A DNA stretch of 16,529 nt from Candidatus Desantisbacteria bacterium CG1_02_38_46. Lineage in GTDB: Bacteria > Desantisbacteria > UBA1551 > UBA1559. The notes under the pieces were generated by a model. The model did not search any database. It saw only the letters and a list, made by a program, of their open reading frames with translations, and was not told the origin of the DNA. Both the position numbers and the translations under genes were made by a program. The first letter of the stretch is position 1; the number at the start of each line of letters is the position of its first letter. Below are positions 1-14,981 of this stretch, piece by piece. The stretch is taken from positions 7,715-24,243 of the forward strand of contig MNUO01000071.1 in assembly GCA_001871015.1 (NCBI GenBank), written 5' to 3'.

Positions 1-45
1 AACCTTGTTTTTCGTAAAATAAACGTCGAGGGTTGGTCAAAATAA
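1..45 (+). CDS. C-terminal end of an upstream gene (partial, unidentified)
   Basis: The frame beginning at base 1 is open and reads NLVFRKINVEGWSK before a TAA at 43-45. The same 14 residues recur in the second copy of the flanking repeat, in another frame, ending in TAG at 101-103. This suggests that a gene's 3' end was duplicated in tandem. Too little is visible to name a family. It could also be chance open frame inside a non-coding repeat. Confidence 0.3.
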   Translation, partial: NLVFRKINVEGWSK

Positions 46-102
46 GAACCTCTTCGAGAACCTTGTTTTTCGTAAAATAAACGTCGAGGGTTGGTCAAAA
101 TA
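1..102. repeat. Two-copy tandem duplication, 58-bp period
   Basis: A 44-bp segment at 1-44 recurs exactly at 59-102; bases 45-58 separate the copies. The period of 58 is not a multiple of three, so the copies are read in different frames. The unit appears to include the tail and stop codon of an upstream gene. The satD ribosome-binding site (AGGAG, 102-106) begins at the end of copy 2. No clear promoter was found in the repeat. Confidence 0.85.
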
Positions 103-113
103 GGAGTTGAGAA

Positions 114-773
114 ATGAGAAATTATGTGGCAATAATTGGAGATATAATAAGATCACGGAACATTTTATCTCGGAATAAGGTCCAGAAAAATATAAGAAGG
201 ATATTAACCTATATAAACAGAAAATTGCATTCTAATATAGTTGTGCCTTTTACAATAATCAGGGGAGATGAATTCCAGGGATTAGTAAATAATTTATCTA
301 GTGGCTATGAGATTATACTGGAGTTAGAAAAATTATTATATCCAATAAAAATTTCTTACGGAGTTGGATTCGGAACAATAAGTACTACACTGGAGAAAAC
401 TACAGCAGAAATGGATGGAGAGTGTTTTCATCGCTCTCGCCAGGCTATAGAAGATAGGAAACAAAATGAACAAAGTATTGTCTTTCAGACTGGAAATCCC
501 AGGCTTGATACGGCAATCAATACAATTCTGTCTTTGCAGAGTTCAATAAAAGCAAGCTGGAAAAATATTCATTATAGAAGAATTATGCGATATGAAAAAG
601 TAGGCTCTATAGAAAAAGTTGCTGATATTGAAAGGGTTAGTTTTCAGGCGGTTTCAAAAACAATGATCCAGGCAAAATATAAAAAGTTTAAAGCAAGTCA
701 GGACACAATAAAATATCTGTTAAAAAATGTAGGAACAGGTAGGGAAAATATAAACAATAAGGTTGAAAAATGA
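114..773 (+). CDS. SatD family protein with C-terminal helix-turn-helix
   Basis: This 219-residue protein resembles the SatD family, whose biochemical role is not established. The N-terminus AIIGDIIRSR and the motif RGDEFQGLV (residues 50-58) are the family signatures. Residues 90-125 (SYGVGFG followed by HRSRQAIEDRK) have the layout seen near the end of GGDEF or cyclase-like palm domains, and D10 with D52/E53 could be metal ligands; this is inference. Residues about 160-195, with VADIERVSFQAVSKTM, look like a helix-turn-helix. AGGAG lies 7 nt before the ATG. The stop codon sits in the first copy of a 28-bp repeat and overlaps an ATG (ATGA at 770-773). SatD genes are often followed by a membrane-protein gene; here a small membrane peptide follows. 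The family call is fairly sure, the function unknown. Confidence 0.75.
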   Translation: MRNYVAIIGDIIRSRNILSRNKVQKNIRRILTYINRKLHSNIVVPFTIIRGDEFQGLVNNLSSGYEIILELEKLLYPIKISYGVGFGTISTTLEKTTAEMDGECFHRSRQAIEDRKQNEQSIVFQTGNPRLDTAINTILSLQSSIKASWKNIHYRRIMRYEKVGSIEKVADIERVSFQAVSKTMIQAKYKKFKASQDTIKYLLKNVGTGRENINNKVEK

Positions 774-836
774 TATTCAATCCAATAAGGTTGAAAAATG
801 ATATTCAATCCAATAAGGTTGAAAAATGATATTCAA
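755..836. repeat. Three-copy 28-bp tandem repeat spanning the satD stop/start junction
   Basis: Copies start at 755, 783 and 811; the third is exact for 26 bases, then diverges into the next gene. Each contains AAGGTTGAAAAATGA, that is, the last codons of satD, its TGA and an overlapping ATG. The duplication therefore multiplied a translational-coupling site. A period of 28 puts the three ATGs in three different frames. Confidence 0.9.
770..829 (+). other. 19-codon linker ORF created by the repeat
   Basis: The ATG overlapping the satD stop opens a short frame whose peptide ends in SNKVEK, nearly the same as the satD C-terminus NNKVEK. Its TGA (827-829) overlaps the ATG of the membrane-peptide gene at 826. 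A ribosome leaving satD could thus be handed on twice by ATGA overlaps. Whether the peptide is made is unknown. Confidence 0.3.
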
Positions 837-957
837 GATTATCGAGATAATTTTGGGATACGTAATTGTCATAATAGGTGGATATTGGTTTGTCTCAAAG
901 ATTTGTAAATCATTAGACTTGCAAAAGGTTAAGGAAAGCGGGGTTCAGAAAGATTGA
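826..957 (+). CDS. Small single-span membrane peptide, 43 residues
   Basis: The frame encodes 43 residues. Residues 1-24 are almost entirely hydrophobic (IIEIILGYVIVIIGGYWFV within them), followed by a basic and polar tail rich in Lys. This predicts one membrane helix with a short tail. The start is the ATG of the third repeat copy; AAGGTTG lies just before it, and the preceding mini-ORF ends with a TGA overlapping the ATG, which argues for translational coupling to satD. No family is recognised. The pairing of a SatD protein with a membrane partner fits the usual neighbourhood of that family, but the small size is unusual. Confidence 0.5.
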   Translation: MIFKIIEIILGYVIVIIGGYWFVSKICKSLDLQKVKESGVQKD

Positions 958-979: not shown

Positions 980-3634
980 ATGGGGACTAATGACAAAGAT
1001 TATCTTAAAATGATTAGGAAGAAACTGTTTCTCATAGATGGACAAAACTTAATATACAGGGCATTCTATGCACTGCCGCGCCTGACGAATTCAAAAGGAG
1101 TTCCTACCGGGGCAGTGTACGGATTTGCAAATATGCTTTTGAAAATCATCAAAGAGGAGTTCCCTGATTATATTGCGGTGGTACTTGATTTGCCCGGCCC
1201 AACTTTCAGGCACAAGATATATAAGGAATACAAAGGAACTCGGCAGAAGACACCTGAGGAGTTAACAGCACAGATTCCTCTTATAAAAGATATAATTAAG
1301 GGATTTAATATATCTATTATTGAGAAGCCCGGATATGAGGCAGATGATTGTATCGGTACAATTGCAACCAGGGCAGGCAGAGATTTTGATGTTTACATTG
1401 TTACAGGTGACAAGGATGCCCTGCAACTCGTCAACGATAATGTCTGCGTGATGAACCGAAAGCCAGATGAAAAAATTGTGTACAATATAGAAGAAGTGAA
1501 ATCTGCTTTCGGCGTGCAACCACAGGCAATTGTGGATATACTTGCTCTTGCTGGCGATGTATCAGATAATATTCCTGGCGTCAAGGGAATTGGAGAAAAG
1601 ACCGCTGTAAAACTTATAGGACAATTCGGCAGCATCGAAAACCTGCTGAAAAATTTAAATGAAGTCCCGGAGGTTCTTGCTGGCAAGATAAAAGAACATA
1701 TTGAAGACGTGAAACTCAGCAAGGAACTGGTTAAGATTGATATTGATGTTCCTCTCGAAGTTGAAATTGAAGTCCTGAAAAAGAAAGAACCAAACAACGC
1801 CAGGTTGCTTGAGTTATTTACAGAGTTGGAATTCAGCAGATTATTAAAAGAAGTGAGTTCCCAGGGTGAACTTTTTGCCGTTCCTGAAGGACAGAGAGAA
1901 GAAGAACCCGCCAAATCTTTTGTGGAGGGTGCCAGCCTGCGGATGGAGAGTGCAGGAGGGTCGGTTAAAGGAGAGGTGATTGAAAAAAACGAAGACCTGG
2001 AGATTCTGTTGTCCAGAATAAAGAAGAACAAATTTTTAGGTTTTGACCTGACAACTGTTCATGACCCTGAGCAAGGTCGAAGGGTTGAAATTTGTATTGT
2101 CTGTGACGGCAGAGTTTACTTCTTAAAAGATGGAAATTTGTTTAATAAACTGAAACCGCTTTTTGAGAGTGAAGAAATTGAGAAAATAGGTTATAATCTG
2201 AAGGAAAAAATAATTGTTCTCAGGCGAAACAACAGTGTTCCTAAAGGATTTGATTTTGACCTGACCATTGCTTCTTATCTTCTTGAGCCGGAAAGATACA
2301 GCACAGAACTTTCAAAGGCAATAATTTCCTGGGGAGAACATAGCATTAACCCGCAGATGCTTAACCTTTTTTCATTAAAGGAGGACCTTGATACCCTGTT
2401 GAAAAAAAATGAATTATTTGATTTATTTAAAAATGTTGAGATGCCCTTGATTGAAGTTCTTGCTCAAATGGAGATTGACGGTATAAAGATTGATACAGAT
2501 TATCTCGTGGAACTGGGCAAGAGACTTGAAACTGATATAGGTAAGATTTCCCATAAAATTTACAATCTTGCAGGAGAAGAATTTAATATCAATTCTCCAA
2601 AGGTATTGAGACAAATTCTATTTGAAAAATTGAAACTGCCTCCGGACAGGAAAACCAAAACAGGATATTCCACTGATGTGGATGTGCTTAAAAAATTGGC
2701 AGTGAAACACGAATTGCCTGCAAATCTCCTTGACTACAGACAACTTACAAAATTGAAATCTACATATGTTGATGCGCTTCCCAAACTCCTCAATTCCCTA
2801 ACCGGACGGGTGCATACTTCGTTCAATCAGACAGGTACCGTCACAGGAAGACTTTCCTCCAGTGAACCGAATATGCAGAACATACCAGTTAAGACAGAAA
2901 TTGGCAGGGAAATTCGCCGTGTTTTTATACCCGAAGACGGATGGTTATTTATTTCTGCGGATTATTCACAGATTGAATTGAGAGTGCTTGCTCATTTGTC
3001 CTCTGATGAAAATTTAGTTGAGTCTTTTAAGCAGGATGAGGACATCCATCTGCGCACTGCCAGCGAAATTTTTGGGCTTCCGATTGATAAAGTTAATAAT
3101 TCAATGCGCAATCGGGCTAAAGTTGTGAACTTCGGAATAGTCTATGGAATGAGCAGTTTTGGTTTATCACAGGAACTGGGAATAAGCAAAGATGAATCCC
3201 AGGTATATATTGACACATATTTTCTGAAATATCATGGAGTTGCAAGGTATATCCGTGAAATTTTAAAAGATGCAGGGGGAAAAGGCTATGTAAGAACACT
3301 GCTTGGCAGAATCAGATATACACCTTCTATCACCAGCCAGAACAGGACTGTTCGCCAGATGGCAGAGAGAACTGCTATTAACAGTCCAATTCAGGGAACT
3401 GCAAGCGATTTAATTAAACTTGCAATGGTCAATATTTATCGGCAGTTGGACGATAAGGGTTTAAAGACAAGAATTTTGTTGCAGATTCACGATGAACTGC
3501 TGTTTGAATCGCCATTAGATGAAGTTGAGCAGGCTTGCAAATTAATTGAAAAAGAGATGCGAGAAGTTTATAAGTTAAAAGTACCATTGAAAGTAGATAT
3601 AAAAAAGGGTTCGAACTGGCGCGATTTAAAATGA
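980..3634 (+). CDS. polA: DNA polymerase I
   Basis: This enzyme fills gaps in DNA repair and Okazaki-fragment processing. At 884 residues it has the normal three-part layout. The 5' nuclease domain (about 1-290) shows LIDGQNLIYRAF, YEADDCIGTIA, VTGDKDALQLV and GDVSDNIPGVKGIGEKTA. The 3' exonuclease domain (about 330-480) is degenerate: the DxE motif reads FDLTT (D356, T358), and the second site reads NLKEK, with K410 where E. coli has an Asp. Proofreading is therefore probably lost, as in several other bacterial Pol I enzymes. The polymerase domain is intact: TGRLSSSEPNMQNIP, motif A DYSQIELR (D661), motif B with K714, F718 and Y722, and motif C IHDELLFE (H837, D838). An alternative ATG at 1010 gives MIRKKLFLIDG, closer to the usual family start; neither start has a strong ribosome-binding site. 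Confidence 0.97.
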   Translation: MGTNDKDYLKMIRKKLFLIDGQNLIYRAFYALPRLTNSKGVPTGAVYGFANMLLKIIKEEFPDYIAVVLDLPGPTFRHKIYKEYKGTRQKTPEELTAQIPLIKDIIKGFNISIIEKPGYEADDCIGTIATRAGRDFDVYIVTGDKDALQLVNDNVCVMNRKPDEKIVYNIEEVKSAFGVQPQAIVDILALAGDVSDNIPGVKGIGEKTAVKLIGQFGSIENLLKNLNEVPEVLAGKIKEHIEDVKLSKELVKIDIDVPLEVEIEVLKKKEPNNARLLELFTELEFSRLLKEVSSQGELFAVPEGQREEEPAKSFVEGASLRMESAGGSVKGEVIEKNEDLEILLSRIKKNKFLGFDLTTVHDPEQGRRVEICIVCDGRVYFLKDGNLFNKLKPLFESEEIEKIGYNLKEKIIVLRRNNSVPKGFDFDLTIASYLLEPERYSTELSKAIISWGEHSINPQMLNLFSLKEDLDTLLKKNELFDLFKNVEMPLIEVLAQMEIDGIKIDTDYLVELGKRLETDIGKISHKIYNLAGEEFNINSPKVLRQILFEKLKLPPDRKTKTGYSTDVDVLKKLAVKHELPANLLDYRQLTKLKSTYVDALPKLLNSLTGRVHTSFNQTGTVTGRLSSSEPNMQNIPVKTEIGREIRRVFIPEDGWLFISADYSQIELRVLAHLSSDENLVESFKQDEDIHLRTASEIFGLPIDKVNNSMRNRAKVVNFGIVYGMSSFGLSQELGISKDESQVYIDTYFLKYHGVARYIREILKDAGGKGYVRTLLGRIRYTPSITSQNRTVRQMAERTAINSPIQGTASDLIKLAMVNIYRQLDDKGLKTRILLQIHDELLFESPLDEVEQACKLIEKEMREVYKLKVPLKVDIKKGSNWRDLK

Positions 3635-3656
3635 AAAAGGGGACAGGCTACTTTTT
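3634..3656 (-). repeat. Short repeat element after polA
   Basis: A-run, GGGGACAGGCTAC, T-run, beginning at the last base of the polA stop codon. On the minus strand it reads GTAG followed by CCTGTCCCC. The GTAG and TGTCCCC parts match the fourth copy of the repeat after nth (4391-4410), so this looks like a truncated member of the same class. The flanking A and T runs could pair weakly, so a weak terminator is a less likely alternative. Confidence 0.4.
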
Positions 3657-3677: not shown

Positions 3678-4310
3678 ATGGAATTGAAAAAAAGGACATT
3701 GGAAATTATTAAAAGATTAAAAAAAGAATATCCGCACGCGAGGATTGCTCTTGAATTCGATAACCCGATTGAAATTCTTGTTGCAACTATTCTTTCAGCA
3801 CAGTGTACAGACGAAAGGGTAAATAAAGTTACTGAATCGCTATTCAAAAAATATAAAACTGTTAAGGATTATGCAAATGCCGATGTTAAAAAATTTGAGC
3901 AGGAGATTCGCTCCACTGGTTTTTATCACAACAAAGCAAAAAATATAATTAATACAGCAAAGATTATAATGGAGAAATTTGGTGGTAAAGTGCCGGACAA
4001 AATGGAAGATCTGATGAGTTTATCAGGCGTAGCAAGAAAAACTGCAAATATTGTGCTGGGCAATGCATTTGGAAAAATAGAAGGTATGCCAGTTGATACA
4101 CATGTCAGGCGGCTTTCACAGAGATTGGGATTGAGCAAGAACGATGACCCTGAGAAAATTGAGCAGGACTTGATGGAGATTGTGCCCAGAGATGAATGGT
4201 TTGGGGTTTCATATATTTTGATAGACCATGGCAGAAAAATTTGTGATGCAAAGAAACCAAGGTGCAACGGGTGTATTTTGAAAGACATATGCCCAAAAAT
4301 CGGCGTGTAG
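3678..4310 (+). CDS. nth: Endonuclease III (DNA glycosylase/AP lyase)
   Basis: Base-excision repair enzyme that removes oxidised pyrimidines and cleaves abasic sites. Its 210 residues match the family length. ATILSAQCTDERVN (residues 36-49) is the conserved N-terminal segment. The helix-hairpin-helix LSGVARKTANIVLG carries the catalytic lysine (K121), and MPVDTHVRRL carries the catalytic aspartate (D140). Four cysteines near the end (C189, C196, C199, C205; spacing 6-2-5) form the [4Fe-4S] cluster site. GGAAG lies just before the ATG. The last valine codon and the TAG stop come from the first copy of the downstream repeat, so the original 3' end may have been replaced by the insertion. It follows polA at a short distance, a plausible repair-gene pair. 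Confidence 0.96.
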   Translation: MELKKRTLEIIKRLKKEYPHARIALEFDNPIEILVATILSAQCTDERVNKVTESLFKKYKTVKDYANADVKKFEQEIRSTGFYHNKAKNIINTAKIIMEKFGGKVPDKMEDLMSLSGVARKTANIVLGNAFGKIEGMPVDTHVRRLSQRLGLSKNDDPEKIEQDLMEIVPRDEWFGVSYILIDHGRKICDAKKPRCNGCILKDICPKIGV

Positions 4311-4410
4311 TGGCAGGGATTGTTCCTGCGCGCAGTGTAGTGGCAGGGATTGCCCTCTGCGCAGTGTAGTGGCAGGGCTTGCCCTGCGTAGTGTAGTGGG
4401 GACTGTCCCC
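4305..4410 (+). repeat. Four-copy GTGTAGTGG-hairpin array (REP-like)
   Basis: Copies start at 4305, 4335, 4364 and 4391 (spacings 30, 29, 27), each opening with GTGTAGTGG. The third is cleanest: GTAGTG, then 7-bp arms GCAGGGC/GCCCTGC around a TT loop (4372-4387). The fourth has a different stem, GGGGAC/GTCCCC (4398-4410). Copies 1 and 2 have imperfect stems. The GTAG preceding a hairpin is the layout of REP elements recognised by RAYT-type transposases. The first GTAG provides the nth stop codon. No T-run follows, so a simple terminator role is not supported. Confidence 0.85.
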
Positions 4411-4429
4411 ATTATAAAAAGAGGAGTTT

Positions 4430-4888
4430 ATGAAAAAACCAAAAGTAGCGATTATTATGGGAAGCAAATCGAATTTACCAATAGTGGAGAAGGCAGGAAG
4501 TATTTTAAAAGATTTCGGCGTGGAATATGAAATTATCGTTTCATCTGCTCACCGCCAGCCAGGGCGGACACGTGCTATTGCACAGGGACTTAAGAGAAAA
4601 GGAGTAGATGTGGTAATTGTGGCTGCGGGTAAGGCAGCGCACCTACCAGGGGTAATTGCTTCCTGGGTTTCTATCCCGGTAATCGGACTTCCGATTGGCA
4701 CTGCTCCTTTGAATGGCATTGACTCTCTTTTATCTATTGCACAGATGCCAAAAGGTATACCTGTTGCCTGTGTTGGTATCAGTGAGCCGGAAAATGCAGC
4801 ACTTCTTGCAATTCAGATTTTGGGAATGAAATATCCTGCAAATGCAAAGAAATTCAAAGAGCACAAAAGAAAACTCGCAGGGAAATAG
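4430..4888 (+). CDS. purE: PurE-family N5-carboxyaminoimidazole ribonucleotide mutase (divergent)
   Basis: PurE interconverts N5-CAIR and CAIR in purine synthesis. The 152-residue length, AIIMGSKS near the N-terminus, SAHRQP (39-44, H41), AAHLPG and DSLLSIAQMPKGIPV identify a class I PurE. Three positions around the active site differ from the usual family sequence: GSKSD is GSKSN (N15 where E. coli has the conserved D19), AHRTP is AHRQP, and AGGAAHLPG is AGKAAHLPG. The fold is not in doubt, but the canonical activity is less certain. GAGGAG lies a few bases before the ATG. No other purine gene is visible nearby; the neighbours are repair genes and an accessory cassette. Confidence 0.85.
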   Translation: MKKPKVAIIMGSKSNLPIVEKAGSILKDFGVEYEIIVSSAHRQPGRTRAIAQGLKRKGVDVVIVAAGKAAHLPGVIASWVSIPVIGLPIGTAPLNGIDSLLSIAQMPKGIPVACVGISEPENAALLAIQILGMKYPANAKKFKEHKRKLAGK

Positions 4889-4890
4889 CG

Positions 4891-4913
4891 GACAAAATTT
4901 AACCATTTTTGTC
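4891..4913 (+). terminator. Weak AT-rich stem-loop after purE
   Basis: GACAAAA at 4891-4897 pairs with TTTTGTC at 4907-4913 around a 9-nt loop, just after the purE stop and just before a strong promoter. The position suits a terminator, but the stem is AT-rich and no clear T-run follows, so the call is weak. Confidence 0.25.
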
Positions 4914-4922
4914 TAATATTAC

Positions 4923-4951
4923 TTGACATTTTTGGAAATATATGATACAAT
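4923..4951 (+). promoter_or_regulatory. Sigma-70 promoter with extended -10, probably leaderless
   Basis: TTGACA at 4923-4928, a spacer of exactly 17 nt, and TACAAT at 4946-4951 preceded by TG at 4943-4944 (extended -10). Transcription would begin about 7 nt downstream, near 4957-4959, which coincides with the ATG at 4959. No ribosome-binding site fits between them. It would drive the ATPase and restriction-modification cassette. Confidence 0.8.
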
Positions 4952-4958
4952 AATAGCC

Positions 4959-6143
4959 ATGAAGATTTATCCCAGAAGTTTATCTTTGGCTCTGGCAAAA
5001 GAGATTGAAACGTCCAGAATCGTAGTTTTGACCGGGATGCGGCAGGTGGGCAAAACTACCCTGATGCGTCAGATTTTTAATAAGATCGAGGCTTCTAATA
5101 AAATTTTTCTGGATTTTGAAAATCCATTGAATCAAAAAATATTTGAAGAAGAAAATTTTGATAACATCATTCCTAATTTAGAAAGTCTCGGATTTTCCTT
5201 AGGGAAAAAATCATATATATTTTTAGATGAAGTGCAGATTATGCCCCGGATTGTAAGGGCAGTTAAATATCTCTACGACCATTATAAGATTAAATTCTTT
5301 TTAACCGGGTCAAGCAGTTTTTATTTAAAAAATCTATTTCCCGAGTCTTTAGCCGGCAGAAAAGTTAACTATGAACTTTTTCCGCTGAATTTCGAAGAAT
5401 TTTTAGTGTTCAAGGAAAAAGAAAAGGATTTTTTAAAAGATTTTTCTGCTAAGGTAAAAAAGAAGAACAAAATATCCTTTGAGCTGTATAAAAAATTATT
5501 TGATGAATATTCAGAATTCGGGAGTTTTCCTGCCATAGCATTGGAAAAAGACAGGTCGGGAAAAAGGCAGATATTAGAGGATATATTTAAATCCTATTTC
5601 GAGAAAGACATAAAAGTTTTGGCAGATTTCAGAGAATTGGGAAAGTTCAGGGACCTAATTCTGCTGCTGGCTAACCGCGTAGGTTCGAAAATTGACATTA
5701 GTAAGATTTCATCCGAAATAGGAATTTCAAGAGAAACCGTTTATTCCTATCTGAATTTTTTGGAAAGTACTTATTTTATCTCCTTGATTGAACCGTTTTC
5801 TAAAAGTATTGACGGAGAAGTGAGGGGTGCAAAGAAAATATATTTTTGTGACAGCGGACTTTTGAATTATCTGGGCAGAATCCAGGAAGGCACTATCTTT
5901 GAAAATACTGTTTTTCAAAACCTCAGAAAATATGGAAATTTGAATTATTACGAAAAATACAAGGGTGGAGAGATTGATTTTGTTTTGAATAAAAAATTTG
6001 CATTTGAAGTAAAAAGCAAAGCATCTGTCTCAGATTTGAAAAGACTGAAAAAATTCTCTCAGAATCTAAAGTTAAAAGAGTATTATTTAATTGCAAAAGA
6101 CTACTCAGAATTACCAAGGACAATTCTGGCACAGGAATTATAA
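4959..6143 (+). CDS. ATP-binding protein, AAA ATPase with DUF4143 C-terminal domain
   Basis: This 394-residue protein belongs to the AAA_14/DUF4143 family, common in accessory regions and of largely unknown role. Walker A is GMRQVGKTT (26-34, K32), Walker B is YIFLDEVQ (D90, E91), and LTGSSSF (115-121) is the sensor-like segment. Residues about 240-280 look like a winged helix (KISSEIGISRETVYSYLNFLE). The C-terminus has GGEIDFVL, then FAFEVKSK (D340, E350, K352), a pattern like the PD-(D/E)XK nuclease fold typical of DUF4143. An upstream TTG frame exists from 4923, but it would start inside the -35 box, so the ATG at 4959 is preferred. The restriction endonuclease gene begins directly after its stop. 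Its part in the restriction-modification cassette is inferred only from position. Confidence 0.88.
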   Translation: MKIYPRSLSLALAKEIETSRIVVLTGMRQVGKTTLMRQIFNKIEASNKIFLDFENPLNQKIFEEENFDNIIPNLESLGFSLGKKSYIFLDEVQIMPRIVRAVKYLYDHYKIKFFLTGSSSFYLKNLFPESLAGRKVNYELFPLNFEEFLVFKEKEKDFLKDFSAKVKKKNKISFELYKKLFDEYSEFGSFPAIALEKDRSGKRQILEDIFKSYFEKDIKVLADFRELGKFRDLILLLANRVGSKIDISKISSEIGISRETVYSYLNFLESTYFISLIEPFSKSIDGEVRGAKKIYFCDSGLLNYLGRIQEGTIFENTVFQNLRKYGNLNYYEKYKGGEIDFVLNKKFAFEVKSKASVSDLKRLKKFSQNLKLKEYYLIAKDYSELPRTILAQEL

Positions 6144-6809
6144 ATGAAAAAGAGGCAATTTAAAAAGTGTTCTAATAAATTAACAGAAATATTTAATGAT
6201 GAAAAACTTGTGAATAAAATTAAAGTACGCCTGCCATACTTATTTCAACTTGCAGAATTGGAAAGTTCAAGAGCTGATAGGATAGGGATGGAAGTTGGAT
6301 CACTCAGAGAAAAAATAATAATCGCTTTGCTTATTTACAAATTTGGTGAAGAAAACGTTGAAACGGAAATTCCTATAACCGAGCCTGAAATAGACGTGAA
6401 ACTATTCGGAGCGCCAATTTCGATAAAAACAATAACAAAGAAGAAAAAAGAAGATTTTGGTGGTGTGAAAATCTCCTGGACCGTCGATACTCAAAAATCA
6501 AGAGAATTCTTAGAAAATTATCAGCCCACCAGTGATATTTTGTTTGTTCTAATTAATTGGGATAATGGCGGTGGACTTTATTACATTCCAGTAAAAGCAC
6601 AAAAGGAAATCCTTCGTAAAATAGAAAGAGAAGATTATATTAAACTTCCTAAACCAGGAACGAATCCGAGAGGAGTTGAAATCACAAAAAAGGCACTTAT
6701 AGAATTAGTTAAGCATAGAGAAACCAGAAGTATTGAGATAGACTGGAAAAAAACTAAAGTAGATTTTAATCCTTACAAAAGATGGGTTGACTATTGGAAA
6801 GAGGACTGA
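6144..6809 (+). CDS. Type II restriction endonuclease, ThaI-like
   Basis: The 221 residues resemble the ThaI restriction endonuclease family, whose named member cuts CGCG. Recognisable stretches are FQLAELESSRADRIGMEVGS (34-53), IALLIYKFGEENVETEIPIT (60-79) and EIDVKLFGAPISIKT (82-96). EID followed by SIK (D84, K95) fits a PD-(D/E)XK catalytic core. The gene starts directly after the ATPase stop, with AGGA a few bases upstream, and is followed within 1 nt by a DNA methyltransferase, as expected for a restriction-modification pair. The family is recalled from sequence pattern, not from a search. CGCG specificity is an inference from the family name and may not hold here. The gene looks intact. 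Confidence 0.68.
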   Translation: MKKRQFKKCSNKLTEIFNDEKLVNKIKVRLPYLFQLAELESSRADRIGMEVGSLREKIIIALLIYKFGEENVETEIPITEPEIDVKLFGAPISIKTITKKKKEDFGGVKISWTVDTQKSREFLENYQPTSDILFVLINWDNGGGLYYIPVKAQKEILRKIEREDYIKLPKPGTNPRGVEITKKALIELVKHRETRSIEIDWKKTKVDFNPYKRWVDYWKED

Positions 6810-6810
6810 A

Positions 6811-7896
6811 ATGTTGTTAGTCAGGAAAAAAACAGGTACTAAAACAAGTGCTTTTGGTTCCCCGGGAAGGATTAATCATGATTCTTCCTCCTTTTATAGC
6901 AGTAGATTATACGAGGGGTTGTCTAAAGAGGAGATTGTTAAATATGTTGAAAATCCTATTCCACACGAATTTCTGAACAGGATTTTTTGTAAATCAAGTG
7001 AAAAAATGGAAGAGTTGCCAGACAATAGCGTTCATTTAATGGTTACCTCGCCTCCTTACAATGTAGGAAAAGAGTATGACGAAAATTTAACTTTAAAAGA
7101 ATACAGAGAATTTTTGAAAAAAGTGTGGAAAGAGGTTAAAAGAGTTCTTGTTCCTGGTGGAAGAATTTGCATTAATGTTGCAAATCTTGGAAGAAAGCCC
7201 TATATTCCTCTTGACGCTCTTATTATTGAAGATATGCTTGATTTTGGATTTTTAATGAGGGGTGAGGTTATATGGAATAAAGCCTCAAGTGGCAGCCCAT
7301 CAACTGCCTGGGGGAGTTGGCTTTCTGCTAAAAATCCAACATTGAGAGATATTCACGAATATATTTTGATATTTTCAAAAGGAATGTATTCAAGGGAAAA
7401 TACTGGAAGGAAAAGCACAATTTCCAAAGAAGAATTTCTTGAGTTTACTAAAAGTATATGGACGTTTTCTGCAGAACCAGCAACAAAAGTTGGACATCCA
7501 GCTCCATTTCCTGCTGAACTACCTTATAGATTGATTCAACTTTATACTTTTGAGGGTGATGTTGTTCTCGACCCTTTTATGGGAAGTGGACAGACTGCAA
7601 TTTCAGCAGTAAAGACGAATCGCGATTATATAGGATACGATATAAACAAAGAATATGTAAAATTAGCAGAAAAGAGAATAAGGGAATTTTCTTTAACCCT
7701 TAGTGCTCCTAAGTTGTTTGATTATAAGTTAGACAAGAACGGCAAAAGCAGTAAAATCATTTATACCTCAAAGCAATTGACATTAACTGACAGTCTTGCA
7801 GGATATAAAAAAGAAAAGAAGAGAAAGGTTTGCAGAAAGAAGAAAAAAGCAAGAGCCAAAAAAATTGATGGAGCAGATCAGCGAAAAGATAAATGA
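6811..7896 (+). CDS. Beta-class DNA methyltransferase (N4-cytosine or N6-adenine), probable C-terminal frameshift
   Basis: This is the presumed partner of the upstream endonuclease and would methylate the same site. Motif IV is TSPPYNVG (79-86), and the AdoMet-binding motif DPFMGSGQT comes later (254-262); this order marks the beta class. TSPPY is frequent in N4-cytosine enzymes. The ATG at 6811 is preferred over an in-frame TTG at 6787 because AGAGGA precedes it at good spacing. All catalytic motifs are intact. After SLAGYKK the reading turns into an odd Lys-rich, Cys-containing tail, whereas the next frame gives a normal-looking tail ending at 7957. A one-base insertion in the A-rich run around 7807-7820 would explain this. 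Without it the protein would be about 381 residues. Confidence 0.88.
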   Translation: MLLVRKKTGTKTSAFGSPGRINHDSSSFYSSRLYEGLSKEEIVKYVENPIPHEFLNRIFCKSSEKMEELPDNSVHLMVTSPPYNVGKEYDENLTLKEYREFLKKVWKEVKRVLVPGGRICINVANLGRKPYIPLDALIIEDMLDFGFLMRGEVIWNKASSGSPSTAWGSWLSAKNPTLRDIHEYILIFSKGMYSRENTGRKSTISKEEFLEFTKSIWTFSAEPATKVGHPAPFPAELPYRLIQLYTFEGDVVLDPFMGSGQTAISAVKTNRDYIGYDINKEYVKLAEKRIREFSLTLSAPKLFDYKLDKNGKSSKIIYTSKQLTLTDSLAGYKKEKKRKVCRKKKKARAKKIDGADQRKDK

Positions 7897-7957
7897 TGTA
7901 AGGCAGATTGATTCTGTTGAAGCAATTCAGATACCAACGAGAATGAAAAGAAGTTGA
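7802..7957 (+). pseudogene. Displaced C-terminal tail of the methyltransferase (other frame)
   Basis: The frame starting at 7802 reads RRERFAERRKKQEPKKLMEQ, continues ISEKINDVRQIDSVEAIQIP, and ends TRMKRS before the TGA at 7955-7957. It has the composition of a charged helix and a normal protein end, unlike the tail read in the upstream frame. It has no start codon until ATG 7868, and stop codons lie just upstream (7778, 7784). It is best explained as the original end of the methyltransferase, separated by an indel or a sequencing error. A 29-residue independent peptide from 7868 is less likely. Confidence 0.55.
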
Positions 7958-7985
7958 GGACATATTAGTTTTTCAAAAGTGATTT

Positions 7986-8171
7986 ATGAAGAAACAAAAA
8001 CAAAAGACAAAATTGCAAATTATTAAAAAGCTACACGATGATGGATTTATAGATGGAATGGTTTTGTGGAATCTTCTGGGTTCAAGATTTAAATTTAAAA
8101 AGCAAGAAATAGAAGAGATAGATAAAACATTTAGAGAATATTATCATAAGCCAAACACGGAGGAAAATTAA
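7986..8171 (+). CDS. Small hypothetical protein, 61 residues
   Basis: The protein has a Lys/Gln-rich start (KKQKQKTKLQ), a hydrophobic middle (GFIDGMVLWNLLGSRF) and a charged helical end (KKQEIEEIDKTFREYYHK). It has no membrane segment, cysteine motif or recognisable family. Its TAA overlaps the next ATG (TAATG, 8169-8173), and its last codons contain the GGAGG ribosome-binding site of the epimerase gene. It follows the methyltransferase after a short gap and may belong to the restriction-modification cassette, perhaps as a small accessory protein, but nothing in the sequence proves that. Confidence 0.5.
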   Translation: MKKQKQKTKLQIIKKLHDDGFIDGMVLWNLLGSRFKFKKQEIEEIDKTFREYYHKPNTEEN

Positions 8172-9109
8172 TGAGAGTACTTGTGACAGGTGGGGCGGGG
8201 TTTATTGGAAGTCATATTGTTGAGGAACTTGTCAGGCGCGGAGACGAAGTCAGAGTGCTGGATAACTTTGCAACTGGCAAAAGAGAAAATATTGCTGCAG
8301 TCCTTGATAAAATAGAATTGATTGAAGGGGACTTGCGGAATATGGAAGCAGTCAATAAAGCAGTGTATGGAGTGGAATATGTACTCCATCAGGGGGCGAT
8401 TCCTTCTGTTCCACGCTCTATCGCAGACCCGATTACTACAAATGAAGTGAATGCAGTGGGGACATTAAATGTTCTGGTCGCTGCACGGGATGCAAGTGTA
8501 AAACGGGTAGTTTATGCTTCTTCTTCGTCGGTTTATGGTGAAGCCAAAACCAGGATAAAAAAAGAGAATATGGCTCCCAATCCACTTTCGCCTTACGCAC
8601 TTTCTAAGTTGACGGGTGAATATTATTCAAGAATTTTCTATTCAATCTATGGTCTTGAAACAATTATTTTGAGGTATTTTAATGTTTTTGGTCCCAGGCA
8701 GGACCCTCTTTCACAGTACTCTGCTGCAATTCCAAAATTTATTACTCTTATGATTCAGGGTAAACAACCTACGATATTTGGAGATGGAAGGCAAACAAGA
8801 GATTTTACTTATGTCCAGAATGTTGTGCAGGCAAATCTTTCTAGTTTAGTCGCACCTGGTGCAGCAGGACAGGTATGCAACATAGCCTGCGGTAGAAAGA
8901 TAGAACTGAATAGAGTTATAGAATTGCTGAATAAAACTCTTGAAGTAAAAATATTGCCGGTTTATACTTCTCCACGGTCTGGAGATATTAAGTATTCTCT
9001 GGCAGATATTTCGAATGCAAAAAAGTTTTTGGGATATAACCCGAAGATTAGTTTTGAAGAGGGACTGAAAAAGACAGTGGAGTATTTTAGACGATTGGAT
9101 GTCGAGTAA
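8171..9109 (+). CDS. NAD-dependent UDP-sugar 4-epimerase (WbpP/TviC-like extended SDR)
   Basis: Extended SDR of 312 residues, likely to interconvert UDP-GlcNAc and UDP-GalNAc or the corresponding uronates. The Rossmann motif is TGGAGFIG (6-13), and LDNFATG (30-36) is the cofactor-ribose segment. HQGAIPSVPRSIADP (73-87) is characteristic of the WbpP/TviC type. The catalytic serine region is ASSSSVYG (116-123), and YALSK gives Y142 and K146. GGAGG precedes the ATG. The last two residues (Val-Glu) and the TAA come from the first copy of the following repeat. With the WbpA-type dehydrogenase further on, the set resembles the TviB/TviC pair that makes UDP-GalNAcA. UDP-glucose 4-epimerase activity is the main alternative. 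Confidence 0.87.
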   Translation: MRVLVTGGAGFIGSHIVEELVRRGDEVRVLDNFATGKRENIAAVLDKIELIEGDLRNMEAVNKAVYGVEYVLHQGAIPSVPRSIADPITTNEVNAVGTLNVLVAARDASVKRVVYASSSSVYGEAKTRIKKENMAPNPLSPYALSKLTGEYYSRIFYSIYGLETIILRYFNVFGPRQDPLSQYSAAIPKFITLMIQGKQPTIFGDGRQTRDFTYVQNVVQANLSSLVAPGAAGQVCNIACGRKIELNRVIELLNKTLEVKILPVYTSPRSGDIKYSLADISNAKKFLGYNPKISFEEGLKKTVEYFRRLDVE

Positions 9110-9175
9110 ACTCGACCACTACAATTGTCGAGTAAACTCGACCACTACAATTGTCGAGTAAACTCGACCACTACA
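9101..9175 (-). repeat. Three-copy GTCGAG hairpin array, 26-bp period (REP-like)
   Basis: Copies start at 9101, 9127 and 9153. Each has 7-bp arms GTCGAGT/ACTCGAC with an AA loop, followed by CACTAC. Read on the minus strand this is GTAGTG, a 7-bp stem and a TT loop, the same architecture as the array after nth but with a different stem. The first copy overlaps the end of the epimerase gene and supplies its TAA stop (9107-9109). Confidence 0.88.
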
Positions 9176-13749: not shown

Positions 13750-14814
13750 ATGAAAGCGATAATTTTATTAGGAGGTAAAGGGACGAGGTTGCTGCCCTTA
13801 ACAACCAATACGCCGAAACCACTTATTCCGCTTTTAAATCATCCTTTTATTGTTTATCAAATAGAATTGTTAAAGAAATACGGGATTAGCGAGGTCATAT
13901 TTAGTCTGGGTTATTTGTCAAAAAGAATTAAGGATTTTTTAGAATCTAAAAAGGACTGGAGAATTTCAATCAGGTGTGTGGTTGAGGAAGAACCACTGGG
14001 TACTGCCGGCGCACTGAAGAATGCAGAGAATTTTCTTAAAAAAGAATCCTTTTTAGTCTTAAACGGCGATATACTCACCAGTATTAATCTCGCCAATTTT
14101 ATTTCATTTCATCAAGAAAGGCGTGCAAAAGCAACCATTTCTCTAAGTGTTGTAGATGACCCTACTTCCTACGGACTTGTCAAACTTGATAAAAAAGGGA
14201 GTATTGAACAATTTCTTGAAAAGCCCAGCTGGGCAGAGGCAAGTGGTTGTAAAACTATAAATGCCGGAATATATATATTTGAACCAGATGTCCTTTCATA
14301 CATTCCACCTAAAAGGAATTTTTCTATTGAGAGGGAACTTTTTCCTGTACTTTTGCAAAGAAGAGAAAAGTTCTTCGGGTATGTGACCAAAAACTACTGG
14401 CTGGATATAGGAACGCTTGAAAAATATAAACAGGCGCATCGGGATATACTTGAAGAAAAGATTGTCTTTTCCTTCTTATTATTCAGGAAAGTAGAAAATA
14501 ATGTATGGGTTGAAGGAAATTCCAGAATTTCTCCACGGGCAAAACTTGTTGGACCTATTATGATAGGTGAAAATTGCAAAATTGCAGACGAAGTAGAAAT
14601 ATCCCCTTTCAGTGTCATCGGTAAAAATTGTGTTATTGAAAGTAATGCAAATATAATTAACAGCCTAATTCTGGATGGAACAAAGGTTGGCAGAGAAACT
14701 AAAATGGAAGGTTGTATAGTTGGTAAACATTGCCAGATAGAGAACAATGTCCTTATATCTGAGGGAGTGGCTCTCGGAGATAGAAGCACAGTGAAAGCAT
14801 TCAGCCAGATTTAG
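13750..14814 (+). CDS. Sugar-1-phosphate nucleotidyltransferase with left-handed beta-helix domain
   Basis: The 354 residues have an N-terminal nucleotidyltransferase domain: LGGKGTRLLPLT (7-18), TPKPLIPL with K23, GTAGAL (84-89), LNGD (104-107), EKPS and WLDIGT. A C-terminal hexapeptide-repeat region (about 255-350) has VGPIMIGENCKIAD, IGKNCVIESNA and VGRETKMEGCIVG. This is the layout of mannose-1-phosphate guanylyltransferase-like and related enzymes, and together with the downstream mutase it would make an NDP-sugar. Whether the product is GDP-mannose, dTDP-glucose or a UDP-sugar cannot be decided here. GGAG precedes the ATG, which lies 1 nt after the previous stop. The final G of its TAG is the first base of the following repeat array. 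Confidence 0.88.
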   Translation: MKAIILLGGKGTRLLPLTTNTPKPLIPLLNHPFIVYQIELLKKYGISEVIFSLGYLSKRIKDFLESKKDWRISIRCVVEEEPLGTAGALKNAENFLKKESFLVLNGDILTSINLANFISFHQERRAKATISLSVVDDPTSYGLVKLDKKGSIEQFLEKPSWAEASGCKTINAGIYIFEPDVLSYIPPKRNFSIERELFPVLLQRREKFFGYVTKNYWLDIGTLEKYKQAHRDILEEKIVFSFLLFRKVENNVWVEGNSRISPRAKLVGPIMIGENCKIADEVEISPFSVIGKNCVIESNANIINSLILDGTKVGRETKMEGCIVGKHCQIENNVLISEGVALGDRSTVKAFSQI

Positions 14815-14981
14815 GTGTCAGGTCTTGACATATGACAAATATCAGGACTAAAGTCCTGAGTTACATGTCAAGACCTGACATATGACAAATATCAGGACTA
14901 AAGTCCTGAGTTACATGTCAAGACCTGACATATGACAAATATCAGGACTAAAGTCCTGATTACATGTCAAGACCTGACACC
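14814..14981. repeat. Three-copy palindromic array bounded by an 18-bp inverted repeat
   Basis: GGTGTCAGGTCTTGACAT (14814-14831) is the exact reverse complement of 14964-14981. Between them, units of 50, 50 and 49 bp start at 14831, 14881 and 14931. Each unit has an 8-bp stem TCAGGACT/AGTCCTGA with an AA loop (first at 14842-14859) and ends with TGTCAAGACCTGACA. On the minus strand each stem is preceded by GTAAC and has a TT loop, similar to the two GTAGTG arrays. It fills nearly the whole intergenic gap. No good promoter or T-run was found in it. Confidence 0.92.

What the first reader, a model, noticed from the sequence alone, without database searches (positions are those of the whole stretch)
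4305..9175. Two repeat arrays with different stems share one REP-like architecture: GTAGTG, 7-bp stem, TT loop
The arrays at 4305-4410 and 9101-9175 look unrelated by sequence (stems GCAGGGC and GTCGAGT). Yet the first on the plus strand and the second on the minus strand both read GTAGTG, directly followed by 7-bp arms and a TT loop. The element at 3634-3656 reads GTAG on the minus strand, and the array at 14814-14981 has GTAAC, an 8-bp stem and a TT loop. REP elements bound by RAYT (IS200/IS605-like Y1) transposases have a GTAG tetranucleotide at the hairpin base. A constant guide with variable stems, amplified in tandem, would suggest one mobilising enzyme tolerating many stems. No RAYT gene is in this window.
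Basis: partly seen in the sequence, partly recalled or inferred. Interest (0 to 1): 0.65.

Follow-up and report, generated by a model that had tools for sequence, protein, structure and literature searches.

The report
GTAG-tagged REP hairpins, tandemly amplified
The window carries short DNA hairpins that all start with GTAG but have different stems; they are ordinary REP elements, spread by a known kind of enzyme (RAYT), and this uncultivated genome repeats them in unusually many tandem arrays.

Summary
The arrays at 4307-4387 (+) and 9101-9174 (-) share GTAGTG, a 7-bp arm and a TT loop with unrelated stems. Genome-wide, GTAGTGGN6TTN6C occurs 208 times against 5 in the reversed control. In 495 kb, GTAG is the most enriched of all 256 tetramers upstream of such hairpins. 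Stems covary; guide and loop stay fixed. The array at 14814-14981 combines a second class (GTAAC + 8 bp) with another palindrome. The element at 3634-3656 is not a GTAG hairpin but a GGGGACAG repeat of a different class.

The RAYT interpretation is supported. No cognate RAYT is in this 88%-complete assembly. The nearest relative (Ca. Desantisbacteria CG1_02_49_89) has one flanked on both sides by the window's GCAGGGC-TT-GCCCTGC stem. A Zixibacteriota RAYT is flanked on both sides by a dimer with GTCGAG and GCAAAG stems. Of 58 RAYT loci, 50 carry two or more stems and 48 a single guide; the guide follows the RAYT tree.

This is a new member of a known kind: GTAG REPs with interchangeable stems, TY loops and stop-codon supply are published. 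Less expected are the head-to-tail arrays and identical 22-mers in at least seven phyla.

The parts
4307..4329 (+). Array 1, copy 1, imperfect: GTAGTG GCAGGGATTGTTCCTGC. Its TAG (4308-4310) is the stop codon of the nth-like (endonuclease III-like) ORF 3678-4310.
4337..4360 (+). Array 1, copy 2, decayed: GTAGTG GCAGGGATTGCCCTCTGC
4366..4387 (+). Array 1, copy 3, perfect REP: GTAGTG GCAGGGC TT GCCCTGC. The same stem flanks the RAYT gene of the related Desantisbacteria genome (L337).
4398..4410 (.). Palindrome GGGGAC-T-GTCCCC directly after two abutting GTAGTG motifs at the end of array 1; looks like the other, TIR-type repeat class (inference)
   Evidence: motif GGGGWSAS from PMC3733652
9101..9122 (-). 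Array 2, copy 1: GTAGTG GTCGAGT TT ACTCGAC. The stem supplies the TAA stop (9107-9109) of ORF 8171-9109.
9127..9148 (-). Array 2, copy 2, identical
9153..9174 (-). Array 2, copy 3, identical; the linker AATT is the same between all copies
14842..14864 (-). Array 3, GTAAC-class REP: GTAAC TCAGGACT TT AGTCCTGA (units repeated at +50 and +100; the third lacks one G)
   Evidence: (62 GTAAC-class elements in 495 kb)
14892..14914 (-). Array 3, second GTAAC-class REP
14942..14963 (-). Array 3, third GTAAC-class REP, one base missing in the guide
14814..14981 (.). Whole composite array 3; bounded by and interleaved with TGTCAGGTCTTGACA palindromes. The related ATGTCAAGACCTGACCCC occurs twice downstream of a different RAYT (L146) in the related genome.
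3634..3656 (+). Separate repeat class, not a GTAG REP: AAAAAGGGGACAGGCTACTTTTT (core found 8 times in 495 kb). A related AAAAAGGGGACG repeat flanks the broken RAYT gene L001 of this genome.

Best explanation
The arrays are GTAG-tagged REP elements. Each is a strand-specific single-stranded hairpin: a 5' guide GTAG, two unpaired bases (TG), a short perfect stem of nearly free sequence, and a YTYR loop. A RAYT transposase (Y1 HUH enzyme, IS200/IS605 relative) would bind the folded strand through guide and loop, nick at a dinucleotide chosen by the guide, and rejoin it elsewhere, so stems can drift by compensatory change and several stem types share one enzyme. Head-to-tail arrays then grow locally by slippage or unequal recombination, which copies linkers together with hairpins. 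Shown here: architecture, excess, covariation, guide-hairpin link, RAYT genes flanked by the same elements and by several stems at once, RAYT fold, local linker duplication. Inferred: cleavage chemistry, dependence on guide and loop (from published in vitro work on other REP systems), mobilisation in this organism. The cognate RAYT of this genome is either in the unassembled 12% or lost.
For: Genome-wide excess. Among 27 distinct pattern hits not selected for pairing, cells with changes on both sides of a pair 25 against 8.6 shuffled, covariation score 0.402 against 0.203, collapsing to 0.093 or less when partners are slid. RAYTs flanked by matching elements: L337 in the same order, L339 with GTCGAG and GCAAAG stems, L332 and L336 with GCAGAG and GCAAAG in or beside the gene, and L150/L152 for GTAAC. 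50/58 loci with two or more stems, 48/58 with one guide. Guide class follows the RAYT tree: 13 changes against 29.2 shuffled, 0 of 200 as low. RAYT identity: Pfam Y1_Tnp, NCBIfam REP_Tyr_transpos better than the IS200 model though just under its cut-off, best profile and fold match 4er8, E. coli RAYT bound to a REP. Linkers identical within arrays 34/54, between arrays 30/892. 16 of 16 inverted neighbours have different stems.
Against: No RAYT of the matching subfamily in the window's own assembly; its two other RAYTs are flanked by different repeats and the third Y1 hit is an edge fragment that looks like IS200 TnpA. L337's flanks carry GTAGCT, not GTAGTG. No strain comparison showing an element present in one and absent in another was possible. 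[quoted passage not shown]
Confidence: 0.88

Rival explanations
1. The hairpins are kept mainly as RNA elements at gene 3' ends (transcript stabilisers or weak terminators), with mobility only in the distant past.
For: Elements often sit right behind genes: in 9 of 61 clusters the TAG of GTAG is the stop codon of the ORF, and both GTAGTG arrays of the window supply a stop codon. RNA would form the same hairpins; G-U pairs occur.
Against: The GTAG strand shows no significant preference for the gene's sense strand (21 against 11, p = 0.11), and array 2 of the window lies antisense to its upstream gene. The guide is outside the hairpin and would have no obvious role in RNA. Clusters also lie inside ORFs (14 of 59 by a simple ORF caller).
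Confidence: 0.08
2. The tandem arrays are plain satellite repeats that arose by replication slippage around chance palindromes, with no dedicated enzyme.
For: Linkers are copied together with units inside arrays (34/54 against 30/892), so array growth is local.
Against: Dispersal of about 200 copies with one shared guide over many contigs cannot be made by slippage; the same elements flank RAYT genes elsewhere.
Confidence: 0.03
3. Several RAYTs, each strictly specific for one stem, dispersed the families, and all of them are missing from this assembly.
For: In relatives the two spacer bases and the stem go together (G001: GTAGCT with GCAGGGC, GTAGTG with GCAGAGC; G059: GTAGTT with GCAGAGC-TT, GTAGTG with GCAGAGT-TT), so subfamilies exist. 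Multiple RAYTs per genome are common.
Against: Single RAYT genes are flanked by two to seven stems. G001 holds only one strong match to this subfamily yet carries both GTAGCTGCAGGGC and GTAGTGGCAGAGC families. Chimeric copies mix two stem families.
Confidence: 0.12

Closest known systems
GTAG super-family of REPs (Di Nocera et al. 2013, PMC3733652), in particular families with two unpaired bases between GTAG and the stem
   Same: GTAG at one end, short perfect stem, 2-nt TY loop, sub-families with alternative complementary stems, intergenic with some intragenic copies, TAG used as stop codon of neighbouring ORFs, inverted neighbours often with different stems
   Different: New host lineage (an order represented by Ca. 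Desantisbacteria); head-to-tail neighbours predominate (55/71) where the survey found them absent or rare in most genomes; spacer is TG or CG
RAYT/REPtron of group 3, REPtron Mb of Marinomonas (Corneloup et al. 2021, PMC8266576)
   Same: GTAG two bases away from a short perfect stem; loop TTTA in which T, T and A are required in vitro, as in the commonest loop here; stem changes largely tolerated, mismatches not
   Different: Stem 5 bp there, 6-7 bp here; no biochemistry on the Desantisbacteria-type enzyme
TnpAREP subclass 2.4 (PMC6006769; RAYT group 4)
   Different: Several genes here also carry a sense-strand copy before the HUH motif (L328-L330, L332, L335, L336, L358, L360); assignment to a subclass was not tested with the authors' own profiles
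TIR-flanked RAYT genes (TIRYT; PMC3733652)
   Same: GGGGWSAS-type repeats: window 3634-3656 fits the motif, and a similar repeat flanks RAYT L001

Membership tests
GTAG REP | Unpaired GTAG at the 5' end of a short palindrome | tested here: met
   GTAG is first of 256 tetramers before 7-bp/2-nt-loop hairpins
GTAG REP | High copy number, mainly intergenic | tested here: met
   208 pattern hits in 1.73 Mb; 14 of 59 clusters inside ORFs although about 88% of the sample is called as ORF
GTAG REP | Stem kept by complementary changes, loop short (TY) | tested here: met
GTAG REP | Inverted (head-head or tail-tail) dimers predominate over head-to-tail | tested here: not met
   55 of 71 neighbour pairs are head-to-tail. 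In the survey this is a tendency of most families, not a definition.
RAYT-associated (REPtron) | A RAYT gene flanked by the same REP in inverted orientation | tested here: met
   Met in relatives, not in the own genome: L337 in the same order, L339
RAYT-associated (REPtron) | Cognate RAYT in the same genome | tested here: inconclusive
   No match in the 88%-complete assembly; contig C30 ends exactly at a REP, so the gene may be unassembled
RAYT protein family | Y1/HUH fold and RAYT-specific profile | tested here: met
   Pfam Y1_Tnp above cut-off; NCBIfam REP_Tyr_transpos E 7e-20, 71.5 bits, just below its cut-off of 80; 4er8 best by profile and fold
RAYT-associated (REPtron) | Strand-specific cleavage of the hairpin by the enzyme | not testable with these tools
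   needs purified protein

The most novel reading that the evidence does not exclude
In this RAYT subfamily the stem is nearly a free label: the enzyme reads only GTAG plus a YTYR loop. The same 22-mers recur in at least seven phyla because the RAYT gene moves horizontally with its REPs and imposes the same few stems, with head-to-tail arrays formed by a rolling or slipping process peculiar to this group.
Probability: 0.25. Interest if true: 0.5.

Novelty: new member of a known kind. Interest (0 to 1): 0.3.

Why it matters
It extends GTAG REPs and their RAYTs to an uncultivated lineage. It also offers natural substrates for a standing question, namely which parts of a REP the enzyme reads: one RAYT gene bordered by two unrelated stems with one guide, and identical 22-mers in distant phyla. 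It corrects a plausible merging of three repeat classes that merely share GTA-like motifs.

Tried and rejected
No Rfam family or tRNA in the window. First pattern was one base too short per arm and was replaced. The own-genome RAYTs L001 and L002 were considered as the cognate enzyme and rejected: their flanks are AAAAAGGGGACG and GGGTCAGACCTC repeats, not GTAG hairpins. No RAYT lay inside the 80 named 22-mer loci themselves, so their genomes were searched. In-frame REPs inside RAYT genes first looked new, but PMC6006769 had described them for subclass 2.4. A strand preference expected of an RNA element was not significant. One folding call failed on length.
Full report
WHAT IS THERE. The window (16.5 kb, contig C85 of a 1.73-Mb, 133-contig, 88%-complete genome) contains three tandem arrays of short hairpins. 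Array 1 (4307-4387, +) has one perfect copy GTAGTG-GCAGGGC-TT-GCCCTGC and two decayed ones, and ends in an unrelated palindrome GGGGACTGTCCCC. Array 2 (9101-9174, -) has three identical copies of GTAGTG-GTCGAGT-TT-ACTCGAC joined by AATT. Array 3 (14814-14981) alternates GTAAC-TCAGGACT-TT-AGTCCTGA (-) with TGTCAGGTCTTGACA palindromes in a 50-bp unit. The hairpins fold better than shuffled sequence. The element at 3634-3656 has no stem behind its GTAG and is another repeat class. The nearest named relative, in the same order, is Candidatus Desantisbacteria bacterium CG1_02_49_89: its handle G063, reached through the MNUP record, gives the same coordinates and scores as G001.

CHANCE. The hexamer GTAGTG alone is hardly enriched (651 against 606 reversed). 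With the hairpin frame GTAGTGGN6TTN6C there are 208 hits against 5. In 495 kb of this genome, every tetramer was scored at the position six bases before a 7-bp, 2-nt-loop hairpin: GTAG comes first of 256 (126 of 2150 occurrences, median rate 0.23%), GTAA second (74 of 4030). GTAGYG hairpins number 115, against 0-2 in each of five dinucleotide shuffles. The contigs read were partly chosen because they hold hits, so the density is not a genome average; the whole-genome count is.

STEM DIVERSITY. Thirteen perfect stems were found (GCAGAGT, GTCGAGT, GTCGAGC, GCAGAGC, GCAGACC, GCAGGGC, GTCGCAT, GTCGGAT, GTGCGAT and others); the loop quartet is TTTA, CTTG or TTCA in 107 of 115. The 27 distinct sequences matching the frame, not chosen for pairing, show 25 cells with changes on both sides against 8.6 in shuffles, and a covariation score of 0.402 that falls to 0.093 or less when partners are slid by one to three bases. 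Guide, TT and the outermost G-C pair are fixed by the search pattern and cannot be counted as evidence in that test. Chimeras such as GTCGAG...CTCTGC show exchange between families.

ARRAYS. 130 elements lie in 59 clusters; 55 of 71 neighbouring pairs are head-to-tail, and all 16 inverted pairs join different stems. Linkers are identical within arrays in 34 of 54 comparisons and between arrays in 30 of 892, so arrays grow by local duplication. In 9 of 61 clusters the TAG of GTAG is exactly a stop codon, as for the nth-like gene in this window.

THE ENZYME. The own assembly has three Y1 genes: a broken RAYT flanked by AAAAAGGGGACG repeats, a RAYT with a DnaA-like C-terminus flanked by GGGTCAGACCTC repeats, and an edge fragment that looks like IS200 TnpA. 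None is flanked by GTAG hairpins in the usual inverted way. The exact 22-mer GTAGTGGCAGAGYTTRCTCTGC occurs in MAGs named as WOR-3/Stahlbacteria, Nitrospinae, Planctomycetes, Elusimicrobia, Zixibacteriota, Desantisbacteria and Parcubacteria, among others. RAYTs from those genomes gave a profile (A1) that matches RAYTs in 25 of 28 genomes searched, strongly in about half, but finds none in the window's own. In the Desantisbacteria relative the gene (L337, 152 aa) lies between GTAGCTGCAGGGCTTGCCCTGC copies on both sides, with a tandem array of partly truncated copies on one; the stem is that of array 1. In a Zixibacteriota MAG the gene (L339) lies between two copies of a heterodimer with GTCGAG and GCAAAG stems; three of the four guides read GTAGTG and one GTAGG. 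RAYTs L150 and L152 of the relative are flanked by GTAAC hairpins with several stems, the class of array 3. Over 58 RAYT loci with two or more hairpins, 50 have at least two stems and 48 a single guide tetramer. On a tree of 64 RAYTs the guide class needs 13 changes against 29.2 with shuffled labels; some loci are near-copies and the tree is a quick one, so this shows clustering, not strict co-inheritance.

The proteins are RAYTs: Pfam Y1_Tnp above cut-off, NCBIfam REP-associated tyrosine transposase at 70-75 bits, just under its cut-off of 80 and well above the IS200 model. The best PDB profile match and best fold match of an AlphaFold2 model (pLDDT 87) is 4er8, E. coli RAYT bound to a REP hairpin.

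MECHANISM. Shown by sequence: strand-specific architecture, link to RAYT, tolerance of several stems next to one gene, local array growth. Inferred from published biochemistry: in group 3 REPtrons the guide participates in choosing the cleavage dinucleotide, loop positions (TTNA in Marinomonas) are essential, and stem changes are tolerated while mismatches are not (PMC8266576). This fits the fixed guide, YTYR loop and drifting stem seen here. That inverted neighbours always differ in stem fits the published suggestion that identical inverted pairs form long hairpins that are removed (PMC3733652).

KNOWN OR NEW. PMC3733652 describes GTAG REPs with alternative complementary stems, TY loops, two extra bases in some families, GTAG supplying stop codons, and a separate class of RAYT genes flanked by GGGGWSAS repeats. 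PMC6006769 describes in-frame REPs inside RAYT genes of subclass 2.4. The finding is therefore a new member of a known kind, in a lineage for which the few papers I read gave no description. The predominance of head-to-tail arrays and the identical 22-mers across phyla are the less expected points; the latter depends on MAG binning being sound.

Noticed in passing
L328, L329, L330, L332, L335, L336, L341, L353, L358, L360 (inside the RAYT ORF): RAYT genes carry GTAG hairpins in frame within their own coding sequence, often a sense copy before the HUH motif (e.g. GTAGTTGCAGAGCTTGCTCTGC = VVAELAL) and an antisense copy after it; in L335 and L332 internal and flanking stems match. Copies between HUH and Y are known (PMC6006769); the sense copy before HUH, which hardly changes the protein's length, seems less documented.
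   Followed up: partly
window 1-105: 47-nt direct repeat AACCTTGTTTTTCGTAAAATAAACGTCGAGGGTTGGTCAAAATAAGA (two copies); the core CCTTGTTTTTCGTA recurs at L036:16342 and next to an IS200 gene in the related genome (L138).
   Followed up: no
window 755-838: Three tandem copies of a 28-nt unit CAATAAGGTTGAAAAATGATATTCAATC, overlapping the end of ORF 114-773; not found elsewhere in the 495 kb read.
   Followed up: no
L002:1462-2445: RAYT of the window's genome with a C-terminal DnaA-like domain (NCBIfam DnaA, E 8e-16), flanked by inverted GGGTCAGACCTCAACATC repeats.
   Followed up: partly
G000:C30:5284-5305 (contig length 5305): A contig ends exactly at a GTAGTG hairpin, suggesting that the repeats break the assembly and may hide the cognate RAYT.
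   Followed up: no
L048:4877-5042, L310:7507-7618: Tandem REP arrays with periods of 24 and 30 (multiples of three) lie inside long ORFs, so they may be translated as repeats.
   Followed up: no
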